From a bacterium (GTDB lineage Bacteria; JALSQH01), in NCBI GenBank assembly GCA_026985515.1, contig JALSQH010000097.1, forward strand, positions 1 to 14,421: DNA of 14,421 nt, written 5' to 3'. The position numbers and the translations under genes were made by a program. The notes beneath the pieces were generated by a model, which ran no database searches, was not told the origin of the DNA, and saw only the letters and a list, made by a program, of their open reading frames with translations. The stretch's first letter is position 1. Every line of letters starts with the position of its first letter. Below are positions 6,053 through 12,742 of the stretch, in pieces.

Positions 6053-6064
6053 AGGAGGAATTTG

Positions 6065-6706
6065 ATGCTGGTATCAATTGCTCGTGCTTTTCAGCAGGGT
6101 GGTCCATTTATGTATGGAATAGGACTTGTTTCAGCTTTTGCCTTCGCAATAATAGTTGAGAGGACATATTACCTTTTCTTTAAGTTTGATGTTAAAGCAG
6201 ATGCTATCTGGCCGGAAATTCTGAATCATCTGAAAAAGGGAGATATAAAGGGAGCAATAAAAATTGCCGATGATGTAACAGTACCCTTTTTCTATGTGGT
6301 GAGACATGCTCTGGAACACATTGATACTGGAAGGATTAAGGATTTTGCCATGGAGGCCTACTACGAGGTTGAACCTGAACTGAATAGAAGAATCGGGTAT
6401 GTGTCACTCCTTGCCAATATAGCCACTCTTCTTGGACTTTTAGGAACAATTACCGGTTTAATAGCTGCCTTCATGGGTGTTGCTGCTGCTGACCCTGGAG
6501 AGAAACAGAGAAAACTTGCCAGCGGGATTGCAACGGCAATGAATACCACAGCCTTTGGACTTATTGTTGCAATTCCATGTTTAATAGCTTTTTCTATTTT
6601 AAAGGCTAAAGCGGATAATATCCTCAACAAAGTGGAGGAGTACAACAGGAAGCTTGTGGATTATGTTACACATCACATTTACAACAGCAATTCGGGAGGA
6701 GAATAA
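6065..6706 (+). CDS. MotA/TolQ/ExbB family proton-channel subunit
   Basis: A 213-residue inner membrane protein with the TolQ/ExbB plan: helix one at about 16-38 (ending before ERTYYLF), a large cytoplasmic loop (40-110) with KGDIKGAIKIADD, helix two at about 112-140 (LLANIATLLGLLGTITGLIA) and helix three at 155-180 (GIATAMNTTAFGLIVAIPC). The helix-lining threonines (T128, T130, T161, T162) are at the usual places. In the family a pentamer of this protein surrounds two ExbD/TolR helices and uses the proton gradient to drive motion. The start is the ATG at 6065, 6 bases after the strong AAGGAGG at 6052-6058; the TTG just before it is in frame but less likely. It overlaps the next gene by one base. 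Confidence 0.93.
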   Translation: MLVSIARAFQQGGPFMYGIGLVSAFAFAIIVERTYYLFFKFDVKADAIWPEILNHLKKGDIKGAIKIADDVTVPFFYVVRHALEHIDTGRIKDFAMEAYYEVEPELNRRIGYVSLLANIATLLGLLGTITGLIAAFMGVAAADPGEKQRKLASGIATAMNTTAFGLIVAIPCLIAFSILKAKADNILNKVEEYNRKLVDYVTHHIYNSNSGGE

Positions 6707-7287
6707 TGGCTTTTAAACCAACTGCAAGAAGTGAAAGGGAAATAAAATCCCAGGAACCAAACCTTATCCCAATAATGAATCTTATGGTTATTCTGATCCC
6801 GATGCTTCTGCTGAACTATCATTTCATTACTCTTGCCATGCTTAATACATCACTTCCCGCTTCTGGTGAGGGAGCAGCCGAAAATCAGCAGAAAAAGAAG
6901 AAAGAGGAGAAGCCAAGACTGAATCTCACAATATCAATCACTGATAAAGGGTTTATAATTGCAGGTGCAGGGGGTGTCCTTGTAAAGGGTAAGGGACCCA
7001 CCATACCTCTGAAAACCACTGACCCAAATGTGCCTCAGTGGAAGAGATATAATTATAAAGCCCTCAACGAAGAACTTATTAAGATAAAGAAAAAGTATCC
7101 TTATGAACAGGATGCAATTATTGCAGCTGAACCAAACATTAAATATCAGACTATCATATCCACAATGGATGCGACACGTAAGGTGATGTCAGATAAACCC
7201 ACTGAAGATCTGAACGGTGACGGTAAGATTGACAGCAGGGATCTGATTCTATTTCCAGGTATTAATTTGAGTCCCGGTATTTTTTAG
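6706..7287 (+). CDS. ExbD/TolR-like protein, first copy, with Asn replacing the membrane Asp and an EF-hand-like loop
   Basis: A 193-residue protein placed like ExbD. A short cytoplasmic N terminus leads into NLIPIMNLMVILIPMLLL (19-36), one membrane helix, then a Lys-rich linker (62-69) and a periplasmic domain. In working ExbD/TolR proteins the helix begins P-x-x-D, and that Asp carries protons; here the position is Asn25. The periplasmic domain has LNLTISITDKGFIIAG as in the family, then unusual extra sequence. Near the C terminus is an EF-hand-type loop at 168-179 with Asp168, Asn170, Asp172, Asp176 and Asp179, which could bind calcium. GGGAGGA precedes the ATG, which overlaps the ExbB stop by one base. 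It likely pairs with the second, Asp-bearing ExbD copy. Confidence 0.87.
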   Translation: MAFKPTARSEREIKSQEPNLIPIMNLMVILIPMLLLNYHFITLAMLNTSLPASGEGAAENQQKKKKEEKPRLNLTISITDKGFIIAGAGGVLVKGKGPTIPLKTTDPNVPQWKRYNYKALNEELIKIKKKYPYEQDAIIAAEPNIKYQTIISTMDATRKVMSDKPTEDLNGDGKIDSRDLILFPGINLSPGIF

Positions 7288-7298
7288 GAGGTGTGAAA

Positions 7299-7844
7299 AT
7301 GGCGAAGTCTCCATCAAAAAGGCCAGGTGTAGGGAGAAGAAAACAGGAGGAAGCCAAACTTACTCTGACATCAATGATGGATATGTTTACAATTATTCTT
7401 GTTTTCCTTATGAAGAGTTATTCAACAGATGTGGAGGTTAATGTTGATGCATCCATGGCACAGAGACTCCCCGTATCTATATCAGAGGCCAAACTTGAAC
7501 AGGATGCTGAGGCGGTGGTGCAGATTACACCTGACGCCATTCTCGTTAAAAATAAGCATGTGGTAACCCTTAACAATTTTAAGGTTCCAAAAACTGCCCT
7601 TGATCCCACAAATCCTTTTCTTATCGTTCCCCTCTATGATGAGTTAAACAATCTGAAGGAAATGGCTTTAAAGCTTGAAGAAGCTGGTGCCATAGTTAAT
7701 GGAAAACCATATAGATTTCAGGGGATTCTTGTCATAAAGGGTGATAAAAATATGCCAAGTTCTCTATTGATGAAGGTGATGTATACCGCCGGTCAGGCTG
7801 AGTTTGCCAAAATTTACCATACTGCCATAAAGGAAGGTGGATAA
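7299..7844 (+). CDS. ExbD/TolR-like protein, second copy, with the conserved membrane Asp
   Basis: A 181-residue ExbD/TolR relative. A basic cytoplasmic start (KSPSKRPGVGRRK) is followed by one helix, LTLTSMMDMFTIILVFLMKS, with Asp28 at the proton-carrying position. The periplasmic part (from about 42) includes LPVSISEAKL, VVQITPDAILV and GILVIKGDKNMPSSLLMKVMYTAGQAEF, the last being the usual TolR/ExbD final helix block. It should be the energised partner of the ExbB-type channel. AGGAGG (7286-7291), which overlaps the previous stop, sets the ATG at 7299 as the start; an in-frame GTG at 7293 lies inside the extended ribosome site. The TAA at 7842-7844 is one base away from the next ATG. Confidence 0.92.
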   Translation: MAKSPSKRPGVGRRKQEEAKLTLTSMMDMFTIILVFLMKSYSTDVEVNVDASMAQRLPVSISEAKLEQDAEAVVQITPDAILVKNKHVVTLNNFKVPKTALDPTNPFLIVPLYDELNNLKEMALKLEEAGAIVNGKPYRFQGILVIKGDKNMPSSLLMKVMYTAGQAEFAKIYHTAIKEGG

Positions 7845-7845
7845 G

Positions 7846-9273
7846 ATGGGTGTGAAACTTTTTGTTATTGAGAATGGTTCGATAACAAAGACTTATGAAG
7901 TGGATGGGCAAAATGTAACCAGGGTTGATGCTGGTCTGCGAGGGAAAAATATTCTGTTGAGTAAAGGACCTGATAATTTCCCTCTTGTTATGTTCCACAA
8001 CGATAAATTTTACTTTTCCCTTCCTCCGTACACTTTTAATGGATTTGTTGAGAAAAGATCTGGCAGATATTCTATTGATGAACTTGTTCAGAAGGGAATT
8101 GGTAAGGAATCTCAGGGATTGATCTGGGGAATAGTTGATCCCTCCACACTGGTAGAAATTGAGAATCAGAATTTAAAAGTGGTCATTGCAGGTGAAAACA
8201 GAGTCTCAGAGATAGAAAAGAGATACTCTGAAAGCAGGGAAAAAAGCGAAAGTAAAGTCGCAGAGGGAAAAACCAGACAAAAGCAAACTGTGACATCCGC
8301 TCAACCCCTTTCTCTTGCCGGTGCTGGTGGACCTTCAGTTGGTTATTTTGATTTCCATGAAATGCGGAAGAGGACAGCTTTTGTTTATTTTGTCATTCTT
8401 TCTATATCTGTTGTAATTGCAGTGGTTATGATGGGGATTCTGGGAAGTATGAAGCTTCCTCCTGAAAAGGCAGATATAACAGCTATCCCCACGAGGTTTG
8501 CAAAATTAATTGTGGAAAATGTACCCAAGCCCGAGAAAAAGAAGGAAGTCGGTACAGGGGAGAAGAAAGAGGAGAAACAGACGAAAGCCCAGAAGATGGA
8601 AGAGACAAAAGAACAGGAGAAGGCTGCAACTGGTAATGTAAGTGAAAAGGCCAGGAAAGAAGCTATCAGAAGAAAGATAAGGCATGTTGGGGTTATTGCA
8701 ATTCTCACATCAAAGGGTGGTCAGGGAATAGTTAAGGATGTTGTAAGTGCGGCCAATTCCATTGGTGACCTTGATCAGGTGCTGTCAAGTATGGGAGGTG
8801 TGGAAACTGCCAAAGCAGGGATGGACATAGAGGCCATTAAAAAAACGAGAGTGGGAGGGGCGGTTGCATCGGCTGATATTGGAAGCCTTGGAGTGGGTCC
8901 CGGACAGAAGGTTGCTCTTGGAAGTAAAAAGATCAGAAGAGTTAGAGCATCCATAAATCTTGGTGGTGGTAAAATCAGCGGAGCCCTTGCCGGAGAAGTT
9001 ATCAGAAGAACGGTTAGAAGGAATATTAATGGAGTTAAATACTGTTATGAAAAGGAGTTGAAGAGAAACCCCAAATTACAGGGGAAAATTGTTGTTCTTT
9101 TCACAATTGGCAGGGATGGAAGGGTAAAGAAAGCGAGAATACAGTCCACGACGATGCACAATGAGGCTGTTGAATCATGTATTTTAAGAATGATAAGAAG
9201 ATGGCGATTTCCAAGACCAGAGAAGGGCAGTGTTACTGTTAGTTATCCTTTTATTTTCACTCCAGGTTCATAA
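7846..9273 (+). CDS. TonB-like energy transducer with AgmX/PglI-type C-terminal domain
   Basis: A 475-residue protein in four parts. Residues 1-120 are a cytoplasmic, beta-rich domain perhaps related to FHA folds (not certain). A charged linker leads to one membrane helix at about 177-199. Then come a Lys/Glu-rich spacer (227-262), a Gly-rich segment (285-360), and a TonB-C-like end domain (384-472). That last domain carries the marks of the AgmX/PglI tail: VKYCYEKELKRNPKLQGK, GRDGRVKKARIQST, ESCILRMIRRWRFPRP and VSYPFIF, with Cys400 and Cys445 likely bonded. Such proteins couple ExbB/ExbD motors to the outer envelope; relatives occur in Myxococcus gliding machinery. The ATG at 7846 follows GGAAGGTGG. 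The last 44 bases also encode the signal peptide of the next gene. Confidence 0.88.
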   Translation: MGVKLFVIENGSITKTYEVDGQNVTRVDAGLRGKNILLSKGPDNFPLVMFHNDKFYFSLPPYTFNGFVEKRSGRYSIDELVQKGIGKESQGLIWGIVDPSTLVEIENQNLKVVIAGENRVSEIEKRYSESREKSESKVAEGKTRQKQTVTSAQPLSLAGAGGPSVGYFDFHEMRKRTAFVYFVILSISVVIAVVMMGILGSMKLPPEKADITAIPTRFAKLIVENVPKPEKKKEVGTGEKKEEKQTKAQKMEETKEQEKAATGNVSEKARKEAIRRKIRHVGVIAILTSKGGQGIVKDVVSAANSIGDLDQVLSSMGGVETAKAGMDIEAIKKTRVGGAVASADIGSLGVGPGQKVALGSKKIRRVRASINLGGGKISGALAGEVIRRTVRRNINGVKYCYEKELKRNPKLQGKIVVLFTIGRDGRVKKARIQSTTMHNEAVESCILRMIRRWRFPRPEKGSVTVSYPFIFTPGS

Positions 9274-9772
9274 CCTGTATGGGGGTTCACCTGTAACTTC
9301 CCCCACCCGGAAAGAGGTGAGTGAGGTTGCCAGAAAGTTAAAATTTCCCTTTTCATACTATTCTCTTTCTGTAACTCCAGAGGGGAATTTGAGTTTACCT
9401 CTTGAATTCGATTTCAGAAAATATGTGAAAGGTGAAATAAAGGAGTATTCCACCAGAGTTTCTGAGGCAATTTTAAATCTGGAAGATTTAAAGAAAAAGG
9501 CTGAAGAAAAGAATTTTGTAGTGCCCCTGAGATTCATTGAAGCCAATTTACGGGCTGCCCGGGATCTTTATGAATTGTTTAAAGGAAATATTGAGGAAAT
9601 AGATGAACTTTTAAAGGGTCCTTTACACCATCGTGAAATTGATTTAATAAAGGAAAAATTGAGAAATATCAGGCTGTTATCTGAAAGAATCGGAGTGATG
9701 TGGAAATCCTCAAGCGATTTTTACAGAAAAACAACCAATTTTGTTCCATTTAGAGTGGAACTTGTCGAGTAA
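9230..9772 (+). CDS. Predicted exported helical protein, unknown function
   Basis: A 180-residue product with no family I recognise. Its first 10 residues (MLLLVILLFS) are hydrophobic and look like a signal peptide, ending near LYGGS, although the usual Lys/Arg before the core is missing. The rest has a short beta-like part (LSVTPEGNLSLPLEFDFRKYV) and then mostly charged helix, roughly 70-165. The only start that keeps the signal peptide is GTG at 9230, inside the end of the TonB-like gene, with AGAAGGG just upstream. A GTG near 9316 would give a cytoplasmic form. Its place between the TonB-like gene and the YhaM-type nuclease suggests a periplasmic part of the same machine; that is inference only. 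Confidence 0.72.
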   Translation: MLLLVILLFSLQVHNLYGGSPVTSPTRKEVSEVARKLKFPFSYYSLSVTPEGNLSLPLEFDFRKYVKGEIKEYSTRVSEAILNLEDLKKKAEEKNFVVPLRFIEANLRAARDLYELFKGNIEEIDELLKGPLHHREIDLIKEKLRNIRLLSERIGVMWKSSSDFYRKTTNFVPFRVELVE

Positions 9773-9787
9773 CAGGAGGGAATTGTA

Positions 9788-10819
9788 TTGAAGGAAATCT
9801 TTGTGAAGGATCTTTCTTCGGGGAAAAGGATTCAGGGTGTTTTCTTTGTAAAGAACAAGGTGATGGCCATTGACAGACAGGGAAAACCCTACCTGATTGT
9901 TCTCCTTTCAGATAAAACAGGGGATGTTGAGGCGAGATTGTGGGAAAATGTGGAGCATTTTTCAAAACTTTTTGAAGTGAATGATGTGGTAATGATTGAT
10001 GGATGGACCCAGACATATCAGGGTAAGTTACAGATAAAGTTGATAAAAATTATGAGAAGCGAAGAGGAATGGAATTTTGAAGATTTTTTCCCGGGAAGGA
10101 GAAGGGAAAAGAAGGAGTTAATCAGGGAGTTTAATGCTCTTTTCAACATGTATCTGAGGGATGTTTATTTAATTGAACTGGTTGATCTTTTCCTAAAAGA
10201 CCAGGATTTCATGGAAAAGTTTCTCACTGTTCCTGCGGCCAAGTCTCTTCACCATGCCTATATTGGTGGACTTGCGGAACATACACTTTCGGTGATGAAG
10301 GCAGTGGTAAAGCTATCTGAACATTATAGGAGGTTTTACGGAGAGAGTTTCAATCATGAGGTGGCTCTTGTGGGAGCTTTTTTGCATGATGTGGGGAAAA
10401 TAAAAGAACTTTCATATGAGAAGAGTTTCAACTATACTGATGAGGGAAGACTTCTCGGACATATTATCCAGGGAATCCAGATGGTTGATGAAAAAATAAA
10501 GTCCATAAAAGGATTTCCTGAACTTCTGAGATTGCATATTCTTCACATTATCGCAAGTCATCACGGAAATTATGAATTTGGTTCTCCCAAGAGGCCCAAA
10601 ACCATAGAGGCTCTAATTGTTCATTATGCTGATGATCTTGATTCAAAAATTGAGAGTTTTCACTCTCATATGAAGGAAATCAGAGATACATCTGATGACA
10701 GATGGACCGGCTATCTCAAACATTACGACAGGTTTTTATTTGTGGAGCCCTACGAAAGTTCCGAACTTGAACCTTCTGAAAGTACCCAGCTTGAATTCTT
10801 CTCTGACTTTGATGAGTGA
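9788..10819 (+). CDS. yhaM: YhaM-type 3'-5' exoribonuclease, OB-fold plus HD domain
   Basis: A 343-residue protein with the two YhaM domains: an N-terminal OB-fold (about 4-90: VLLSDKTGDVEARLWEN, DVVMIDGWTQTYQGKLQIKL) and an HD hydrolase domain (155-290). Metal ligands are visible at His165 (GGLAEHTLS), His200-Asp201 (GAFLHDVGKI), His258-His259 (IIASHHGNYEFGS) and Asp282-Asp283 (HYADDLDSK). Bacillus YhaM is a manganese-dependent 3'-5' nuclease acting on single-stranded RNA and DNA, and the length is similar (about 314). The start is TTG at 9788, supported by AGGAGGG at 9774-9780 with 7 bases of spacing. It is the last gene of the operon, 1 base from the convergent lipoprotein gene. It may ride along rather than belong functionally. 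Confidence 0.88.
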   Translation: MKEIFVKDLSSGKRIQGVFFVKNKVMAIDRQGKPYLIVLLSDKTGDVEARLWENVEHFSKLFEVNDVVMIDGWTQTYQGKLQIKLIKIMRSEEEWNFEDFFPGRRREKKELIREFNALFNMYLRDVYLIELVDLFLKDQDFMEKFLTVPAAKSLHHAYIGGLAEHTLSVMKAVVKLSEHYRRFYGESFNHEVALVGAFLHDVGKIKELSYEKSFNYTDEGRLLGHIIQGIQMVDEKIKSIKGFPELLRLHILHIIASHHGNYEFGSPKRPKTIEALIVHYADDLDSKIESFHSHMKEIRDTSDDRWTGYLKHYDRFLFVEPYESSELEPSESTQLEFFSDFDE

Positions 10820-10820
10820 G

Positions 10821-12680
10821 TCACTTTTCTCCCTTCATTTTCAGTAATGTGGGTACGGTTCTGTATTTACTTTCAATATATGGGATGAGCTCTTTGATTA
10901 TATAGTCTTCGTACCTGTAACCATCCTGACCTGAATTGTCAACATGGTTAACAAAGAAACTTCCCTGCACCTTTTTGACACTGTGACCATCGGGAAAAAC
11001 TATAATCATATGTTTTAATTTACCCATAGCCATCAGATATGTCAGAACCAGCCCTGTCTGCCACATATCACTTGCTTTCATTCCATACCCGTGAAGAAAG
11101 TATACCACAGGATAGTATCTTTCCGGGAAATCATCATAACCTGGGGGGAGGGTCACAGAGAATTCCCTGTAAACTCCCAGAATCTTGCTCTTAAAACCAT
11201 CAACAAATGCCTTGCCAATTTCAGTTGAGGTTTCGAGGTACGAATATTGAGGAGGAATATGGTGGGAAATGTACATGAAAATTCCAAGAACCCTCATAAC
11301 AACCTGTGAGAAGTTACCCACATGGCCGCCATCTCCACCCCTGTGTTTTGCCTGGTCAATGGTCAGGTTCTGGTGTCCATACAGAACCAGAAAATTATCT
11401 GGTGTTTTGCTCCAGTCAATTCTGAAGAATATGTTTTCATCTCCGGGATAATGAGGTATCTGATCAAAGCCGTTGTAAATCGCTGCATCTCCATTTGTGA
11501 GATATTTTATTTTTCCAATGAACCTCTTTGCACCCTCCTGAAAGAAGAAGGTGTCTTTAACACCGGCATCAAGATAAAATTTGGTGTGCCTGAAATCCAC
11601 ATTATCAAGGAGAGTGTATGGGTCAGCTCTGAACATGTTGTATATATTGGGATTGTAATCAAATTTCCCGTTTCCCTCACCATAATCGTACGGTGAATTT
11701 TCTGTACCATAAATGCCATCTATTCCAGTGTCTTCAAAGGGTTCACCCGGTCCTGTCTGGGGATTATCGTAGCTTATCGGTCCCGGGCCATCATATACTA
11801 AATTCCCCTCTGTTCCCGTTGGATTTGTCCAGAAGTTGTAGTCATCATGGTCTGGATCGGGATTGGTGACTGGATCATAGCCTGGTTCTTCTGGATCAGG
11901 TATTCCATCTCTTCCGTAATCCAGAAACGGTTCCGATATTTGTCTTATGACAGGTTCACCCTTATCTCTTTTCCCATTTCCATTGCAGTCCACTGCGAGA
12001 CCAACTTCCACAGGTACATCCGGGTCAGGATCATCAAAGATACCATTTCTGTTCACGTCATTTCCATCACAGTAGGTTATAACGGGCCAGAGTCCTTTTT
12101 CATCTGGTGGGATATGTCCGGAATAGGATTGACAGAAGGGATGTTCAGGGTTGTTGTACTCACCGTCGTAAAAGTCATTGAGAACCAGAGGAGCAGGACA
12201 CCCTTTTTGAGTAATTCTCTTGATTAAGTCAATATCTCCATTAGTAACGGGTGGGGGCCAGTAGGTGGAGTATGGGTTATATACAAGAAAATTTCCAAAA
12301 GCCAGGACAAGATCTTTTATGAGTTTAAGATGGGAATCCCTGTCAAAGATGTCGTCTATACCTGTGAACCATTTTTCGTAAGTTATCGGGTCATTTTTCT
12401 CAGATGGAAGGAATCCACCCATCAGATTGTGTCGGATGTGCCACAGGAGATAACCCCAGTCTGTAGGTCCACCCATTATTGCAACTATATCAAACATCCT
12501 GGAATATTTTGTACCTAAATATGCTGCTCCATAGCCACCCATTGAAACTCCAGCCATAATTCGTCCTGTAAATTCGCTACTGTTTTCCGGTTGTTTCTTT
12601 TCCCTGTTTTTACCGGTACAGCTGAAAAGGAGTATCGTGGCCAGAATAATAACAAAAACGGTTCTGATAGTTGACCTCAT
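10821..12680 (-). CDS. Lipoprotein esterase with circularly permuted catalytic domain and Asp-rich insert
   Basis: A 619-residue predicted lipoprotein: hydrophobic signal (8-19), then LLFSC with Cys21 as lipid site. The esterase signals belong to the esterase D / PF00756 group of alpha/beta hydrolases but are in unusual order. The nucleophile elbow AGVSMGGYGAAY (Ser46) comes right after the signal peptide. An Asp/Asn/Gly-rich section follows (about 205-345) with calcium-type loops such as DVNRNGIFDD and DCNGNGKRDKGE. Next are YLDAGVKDTF with candidate Asp376 and GGDGGHVGNF with candidate His453. Only then comes the usual N-terminal half: REFSVTLPPGYDDF, YYPVVYFLHGYG (oxyanion-hole His530-Gly531), IIVFPDG and YEDYIIKELIPYIESKYRT at the very end. 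ATG 12680 has GAGG 5 bases upstream; GTG 12686 is in frame. The substrate is unknown. Confidence 0.85.
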   Translation of the reverse strand: MRSTIRTVFVIILATILLFSCTGKNREKKQPENSSEFTGRIMAGVSMGGYGAAYLGTKYSRMFDIVAIMGGPTDWGYLLWHIRHNLMGGFLPSEKNDPITYEKWFTGIDDIFDRDSHLKLIKDLVLAFGNFLVYNPYSTYWPPPVTNGDIDLIKRITQKGCPAPLVLNDFYDGEYNNPEHPFCQSYSGHIPPDEKGLWPVITYCDGNDVNRNGIFDDPDPDVPVEVGLAVDCNGNGKRDKGEPVIRQISEPFLDYGRDGIPDPEEPGYDPVTNPDPDHDDYNFWTNPTGTEGNLVYDGPGPISYDNPQTGPGEPFEDTGIDGIYGTENSPYDYGEGNGKFDYNPNIYNMFRADPYTLLDNVDFRHTKFYLDAGVKDTFFFQEGAKRFIGKIKYLTNGDAAIYNGFDQIPHYPGDENIFFRIDWSKTPDNFLVLYGHQNLTIDQAKHRGGDGGHVGNFSQVVMRVLGIFMYISHHIPPQYSYLETSTEIGKAFVDGFKSKILGVYREFSVTLPPGYDDFPERYYPVVYFLHGYGMKASDMWQTGLVLTYLMAMGKLKHMIIVFPDGHSVKKVQGSFFVNHVDNSGQDGYRYEDYIIKELIPYIESKYRTVPTLLKMKGEK

Positions 12681-12713
12681 TTCCACCTCGCATTTTTCTG
12701 GTGGTTAGAGGAA

Positions 12714-12742
12714 AATATACAATTTTAATTTCTTATTGTCAA
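12714..12742 (-). promoter_or_regulatory. Strong sigma70-type promoter for the lipoprotein esterase
   Basis: On the minus strand a perfect TTGACA (12742-12737) and TATATT (12719-12714, five of six) are exactly 17 bases apart. The transcript would begin near 12707 and give a leader of about 27 bases containing the GAGG ribosome site before the ATG at 12680. This is the best promoter match in the window and suggests steady expression of a single-gene transcript. Confidence 0.8.

What the first reader, a model, noticed from the sequence alone, without database searches (positions are those of the whole stretch)
10821..12680. Circularly permuted esterase in a lipoprotein
In PF00756-type esterases the order is lPpGY, HG oxyanion motif, PDG, YEDYI..ELIPYI, then GxSxGG, Asp, His. 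Here GVSMGGYGA comes first (Ser46), Asp376 and His453 follow, and the lPpGY / HGYG / PDG / ELIPYI half is at the C terminus. The protein ends (KYRT plus a short tail) just where the Ser strand would normally continue, and it begins (after the lipid Cys and a short linker) exactly at that strand. So both halves are complete and only the break point has moved. One route is duplication of an esterase followed by loss of the outer halves. I know of no described family with this order, but cannot search.
Basis: partly seen in the sequence, partly recalled or inferred. Interest (0 to 1): 0.85.

Follow-up and report, generated by a model that had tools for sequence, protein, structure and literature searches.

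The report
Circularly permuted lipoprotein esterase family
A bacterial surface esterase has its chain order rotated so that the active-site serine half comes first; dozens of other genomes carry the same rearranged enzyme, and it arose separately from the one rearranged family of this kind already known, the type-2 PHB (bioplastic) depolymerases.

Summary
Minus-strand ORF 12680-10821 encodes a 619-aa lipoprotein with the nucleophile/Asp/His half first and the lPpGY-HGYG-PDG-ELIPYI half last. Models built only from normal-order CE1 esterases find both halves, serine half first, in 39 of 39 testable family members. It is not a misassembly: a second genus has it full length at 75% identity, and distant members occur in three more phyla, about 75 of 282 genomes in one of them. 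AlphaFold gives one joined alpha/beta-hydrolase fold (pLDDT 86, pTM 0.89). The best solved match, in order over nearly the whole model, is Penicillium PHB depolymerase 2d81 (Z 16.6; next 9.0), whose type-2 class is already described as having the oxyanion hole after the triad (PMC2666664). So "no described family with this order" is wrong for the fold. By sequence, both halves belong to CE1/PF00756, not to PHB depolymerases, and one shared permuted clade is rejected (AU p 0.002). Best reading: a second, independent permutation at the same break point, in an unnamed family of probable Ca2+-loop lipoprotein esterases. Substrate unknown.

The parts
10821..12680 (-). Coding sequence of the permuted esterase lipoprotein (619 aa from ATG 12680; an in-frame GTG at 12686 is the alternative start)
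   Evidence: full-length relative at 75% identity in another genus
12714..12742 (-). Sigma-70-like promoter match TTGACA-17-TATATT (11 of 12)
   Evidence: a consensus match only, counts near chance in the region as a whole
12618..12680 (-). Signal peptide and lipobox ending at Cys21 (LFS-C; LSS-C in the relative)
   Evidence: sequence reading; no signal-peptide predictor was run
11247..12575 (-). Serine half (canonical beta5 to alphaF): nucleophile elbow, insert, Asp strand, His loop
   Evidence: CE1 serine-half model; secondary structure
12543..12545 (-). Nucleophile Ser46 (48 from GTG) in GVSMGG
11592..12449 (-). Large insert between beta6 and the Asp strand, rich in Asp/Asn/Gly loops
11955..11990 (-). 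EF-hand-like 12-residue loop D-C-N-G-N-G-K-R-D-K-G-E (233-244 from GTG), nearly invariant in the family
11553..11555 (-). Catalytic Asp376 (378)
   Evidence: column invariant
11322..11324 (-). Catalytic His453 (455)
   Evidence: lost in most of the degenerate clade
10851..11195 (-). Canonical N-terminal half (beta1 to alphaB) placed at the C terminus
   Evidence: PF00756 1-115, CE1 N-half model
11088..11093 (-). Oxyanion-hole His-Gly of HGYG

Best explanation
This is a naturally circularly permuted CE1/PF00756-type serine esterase on a lipid anchor. The chain was cut between helix alphaB and the nucleophile strand beta5, and the old C-terminal helix was joined to the old beta1 by a linker of about 15 residues. 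The serine half (Ser46, Asp376, His453) and the N-half (oxyanion HGYG) pack into one alpha/beta-hydrolase sheet and one active site. A large insert with an EF-hand-like loop lies after beta6, where caps usually lie, and probably binds Ca2+ and shapes the substrate cleft. It most likely hydrolyses ester bonds of an external polymer or glycan outside the cytoplasm. Shown: order, conservation, predicted joined fold, CE1 ancestry. Inferred: activity, Ca2+ binding, location, substrate. The permutation is a single event for this family and independent of the one in type-2 PHB depolymerases.
For: Both halves are found by models made only from normal-order esterases, with S before N in 39 of 39. The order is conserved at 75% identity in a second genus of the phylum and at roughly 27-38% in three other phyla. 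The AlphaFold model has pLDDT 86, pTM 0.89 and strands in the permuted order. In-order match to 2d81: Z 16.6, 237 residues, model 16-586, against at most 9.0 for the other rows, nearly all half-domain matches. Ser, Asp, His, HG and PPGY are kept in nearly all members. In one phylum Ser and HG are lost together, as expected if they share one active site. CE1 affinity: hhalign scores 171.6 (N-half) and 57.8 (S-half), against 10.3 and 0.9 to type-2 PHB depolymerases. Tree: permuted family 100/98, joined with CE1 at 100/100; type 2 with type 1 PHB depolymerases at 100/100. One permuted clade rejected, p-AU 0.00216.
Against: No experiment. The CE1 sample was picked by similarity to the family's N-half, which may favour the CE1 placement, although the S-half gives the same answer. 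The tree rests on 199 columns of deeply diverged sequence. The lipobox has an unusual Phe at -2.
Confidence: 0.87

Rival explanations
1. It is a divergent member of the known type-2 PHB depolymerase family, so its permutation is the already known one and its substrate is a polyester.
For: Same catalytic order and, in the predicted fold, the only strong in-order match is 2d80/2d81; the order is described for type 2 (PMC2666664).
Against: NF050059 (type 2) does not match the protein or its genome; the A3 profile does not list 2d80 at E up to 10 while CE1 7xrt scores 5e-21; both halves sit with CE1; a joint clade is rejected.
Confidence: 0.08
2. Assembly artefact or fusion of two esterase fragments.
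For: The window is a whole contig of a 268-contig draft genome.
Against: Same order in an independent draft of another genus, in all 5 genomes of a second phylum, in about 75 genomes of a third including one 10.3-Mb single contig, and the ORF is open throughout.
Confidence: 0.01
3. The protein is an inactive esterase-fold lipoprotein used for binding or structure rather than hydrolysis.
For: A whole branch (phylum of G315/G181) has lost Ser, HG and mostly His yet keeps the architecture and the Asp-rich loops, so the scaffold has a use without catalysis.
Against: The window protein and nearly all members outside that phylum keep the full triad and HGYG.
Confidence: 0.12
4. The two halves do not pair within one chain but between two chains (domain-swapped dimer).
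For: Not excluded by any single-chain prediction made here; no positive evidence.
Against: The linker from alphaF to beta1 looks long enough for pairing within the chain, and the monomer model is confident.
Confidence: 0.05

Closest known systems
CE1 / PF00756 feruloyl and acetyl-xylan esterases (e.g. BT_4077, 7xrt)
   Same: Sequence of both halves, GxSxGG, lPpGY, HG, PDG, ELIPYI motifs
   Different: Halves in swapped order; large insert after beta6; lipid anchor at the new N terminus
Type-2 extracellular dPHA-SCL depolymerases (2d80/2d81; NF050059)
   Same: Order Ser-Asp-His-oxyanion and, in the model, the same break before beta5; in-order fold match Z 16.6 (PMC2666664)
   Different: No detectable sequence kinship beyond the superfamily; groups with type-1 PHB depolymerases; domain of about 300 aa without the EF-hand-like insert
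Tandem CE1 esterases in one ORF (L005, L145, L146)
   Same: Two N-S units in a row, the kind of intermediate from which a permuted gene could be cut
   Different: Full normal-order domains; they do not branch with the permuted family

Membership tests
PF00756 / CE1 esterase | Profile match over the curated cut-off | tested here: met
   63.8 bits against 22; N-half i-E 5e-32, S-half i-E 4e-10 with home-made CE1 models
PF00756 / CE1 esterase | Linear order N-half then serine half | tested here: not met
   S-half at 41-79 and 338-394, N-half at 498-612; same order in 39 of 39 testable members
PF00756 / CE1 esterase | Ser-Asp-His triad and oxyanion HG | tested here: met
   by alignment
PF00756 / CE1 esterase | Esterase activity on feruloyl, acetyl or similar esters | not testable with these tools
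   needs the purified protein
Type-2 PHB depolymerase | Oxyanion hole C-terminal to the triad | tested here: met
   definition from PMC2666664
Type-2 PHB depolymerase | Match to NCBIfam NF050059 | tested here: not met
   no match up to E 0.1, none in the genome
Type-2 PHB depolymerase | Common ancestry of the permuted domain | tested here: not met
   joint clade rejected, p-AU 0.00216; type 2 groups with type 1 at 100/100
Type-2 PHB depolymerase | Same permuted fold | tested here: met
   2d81 Z 16.6, 237 aligned, rmsd 3.7, over model 16-586; predicted model only
Type-2 PHB depolymerase | PHB hydrolysis | not testable with these tools
   needs assay
Bacterial lipoprotein | Signal peptide with lipobox Cys | tested here: inconclusive
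   LFS-C here, LSS-C in the relative by eye; no predictor run

The most novel reading that the evidence does not exclude
Nature permuted the alpha/beta-hydrolase fold twice at the same place, just before the nucleophile strand: once in PHB depolymerases and once in CE1 esterases. The second event founded a widespread, unnamed lipoprotein family in at least four phyla, with an EF-hand-like Ca2+ loop and, in one phylum, a branch that turned into pseudoenzymes.
Probability: 0.8. Interest if true: 0.7.

Novelty: new variant of a known kind. Interest (0 to 1): 0.64.

Why it matters
Natural circular permutations that cut an enzyme's catalytic core are uncommon (own knowledge), and two independent ones at the same break point would suggest that this site is a preferred place to cut the alpha/beta-hydrolase fold. 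That can be tested directly with permuted esterases in the laboratory. The family is also mis-seen by profile annotation, which reports only a partial esterase domain (115 of 251 profile positions in the window protein), so many genes of this kind may sit in databases as half esterases. The catalytically dead branch gives a natural comparison for what the scaffold does without hydrolysis.

Tried and rejected
Misassembly: rejected by independent genomes. Membership of type-2 PHB depolymerases: rejected by sequence and tree, though the fold order is the same. Viral collection: no relative. Plasmid collection: only partial matches; the one read in full, in Novosphingobium (H1), is a normal-order protein. 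Conserved neighbours: none shared across the phyla (only the esterase itself recurs in most loci); only the closest genus shares the TonB-system genes and the HD/OB nuclease, so context gives no function. N-terminal extension of the larger members: predicted Ig-like beta domains with only generic matches. Second N-half upstream in long members, as a trace of duplication: none convincing. Literature searches for a permuted CE1 or feruloyl esterase found none in the open library; subscription papers are not covered.

Full report
1. Observation. The ORF is on the minus strand, 12686 (GTG) or more likely 12680 (ATG, GAGG upstream) to 10821. Pfam finds PF00756 in the protein with profile positions 1-115 at residues 500-613, that is, the front half of the family at the back of the protein. 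The nucleophile motif GVSMGGYGA is at residues 46-54. To avoid circularity I built models of each half from normal-order esterases alone. In the window protein they find the N-half at 498-612 (5e-32) and the serine half at 41-79 (4e-10), with a weaker second stretch at 338-394. Of 41 proteins examined, 39 give both halves at E below 1e-3, and all 39 have the serine half first. Numbering below is from the GTG; subtract 2 for the ATG.

2. Not an artefact. The whole protein, signal peptide included, recurs in another genus of the same family and phylum at 75% identity (G001, JALTID010000094.1). Searching with the serine half alone, and then with alignments, brought in full-length members with the same order from other phyla: 5 of 5 genomes in the phylum of G128, about 75 of 282 in the phylum of G247 (my count of genomes above 130 bits), and 6 of 7 in the phylum of G315, one of them broken. 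One member lies in a single contig of 10,327,335 bases (G559); that length fits Sandaracinus amylolyticus (10.33 Mb, PMC5010890), which would make that phylum Myxococcota. In a wide survey of 386 genomes, 7 have the family (best match of each 189 bits or more), while ordinary esterases reach at most 63 bits on the N-half alone. The window genome has no other PF00756 protein.

3. Anatomy. Lipobox Cys23, a linker of about 18 residues, strand beta5 and the elbow Ser48, beta6, a long insert, Asp378, His455, helix alphaF, a linker of about 15 residues, beta1-beta4 with PPGY, HGYG and PDG, alphaB, end. Ser, Asp, His, HG and PPGY are conserved in nearly all members. The insert holds a loop D-x-N-x-N-G-x-R-D-x-x-E-P that fits the 12-residue EF-hand pattern and is nearly invariant; calcium binding is an inference. 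In the phylum of G315/G181 the nucleophile is Gly (GIGLGG, GVGDGA, GFGEGA), HG is gone and His is mostly gone. That both halves lost their catalytic residues together is natural evidence that they serve one active site.

4. Structure. AlphaFold2 on 39 permuted relatives gives mean pLDDT 86.2 and pTM 0.89 for residues 24-621, with strands and helices in the order expected for a permuted alpha/beta hydrolase. Foldseek finds CE1 esterases over about 130 columns, that is, one half. The second look with VIA-align puts Penicillium funiculosum PHB depolymerase (2d81, 2d80) far on top: Z 16.6 and 16.5, 237 residues, model range 16-586; all other rows are at most 9.0 and nearly all cover one half.

5. 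What is known. [quoted passage not shown] funiculosum there (PMC2666664). From my own knowledge the 2d80 structure paper (Hisano 2006, not held) describes a circularly permuted variant of the fold. So the order as such is known. A recent survey of the superfamily mentions permuted peripheral strands; the passages I read name no permuted CE1 group (PMC11878206).

6. Same event or another? Type-2 sequences were fetched with NF050059 (L180) and from plasmids. Half against half, the family is close to CE1 (hhalign scores 171.6 and 57.8) and shows next to nothing to type 2 (10.3 and 0.9), whereas type 2 is close to type-1 PHB depolymerases (86.4 and 105.6). In a tree of 72 sequences put into one common order, the permuted family is one clade (100/98) joined with CE1 (100/100), and type 2 is one clade (100/98) among the PHB depolymerases (100/100). 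Holding the two permuted groups together costs 71.7 log units, p-AU 0.00216. So two independent permutations at the same place are the best reading. Limits: deep divergence, 199 columns, and a CE1 sample chosen by N-half similarity.

7. Function. Proposed: a lipid-anchored esterase outside the cytoplasm acting on a large or polymeric ester, with the insert as a Ca2+-stabilised cap. Gene context does not help. Larger relatives carry Ig-like N-terminal domains, which by general knowledge are common in secreted polymer-acting enzymes. Substrate is unknown.

8. Verdict. Real, conserved, and a new, independently derived variant of a known trick.

Noticed in passing
L002 (G000:C180, about 1775-2116), L023 (G001:C33), L017 (G015:C106): The Asp-rich stretch of the insert (EPGYDPxTNPDPDHDDYN...GTEGN) recurs at up to 60% identity in other, non-esterase proteins of the same genome and of other phyla: perhaps a mobile, Ca2+-binding cassette.
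   Followed up: partly
L020/L035 (G054:C8, about 136818-137009): The same Asp-rich cassette sits inside a TonB-dependent-receptor-like ORF of 1087 aa.
   Followed up: no
L075, L076, L120-L124 (phylum of G315/G181): Whole branch of the permuted family without nucleophile Ser, oxyanion HG and mostly without His, yet with intact ORFs: conserved pseudoenzymes.
   Followed up: partly
G670:C23:585924-587150 (L125, L131): A copy of the degenerate branch spread over three frames (225, 88 and 300 aa ORFs): a frameshifted gene or assembly errors.
   Followed up: no
L005 (G054:C18), L145 (G292:C33), L146 (G334:C1): Single ORFs with two complete normal-order CE1 esterases in tandem, possible models of a permutation-by-duplication intermediate.
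   Followed up: partly
window 6062-10819: MotA/ExbB, ExbD and TonB_C genes (with one unsearched ORF between them) followed by an OB-HD nuclease, in the same order next to the esterase in G001.
   Followed up: partly
L073, L091-L119 (N-terminal about 300 aa): Many members in the large phylum carry an extra Ig-like beta N-terminal region that the window protein lacks.
   Followed up: partly
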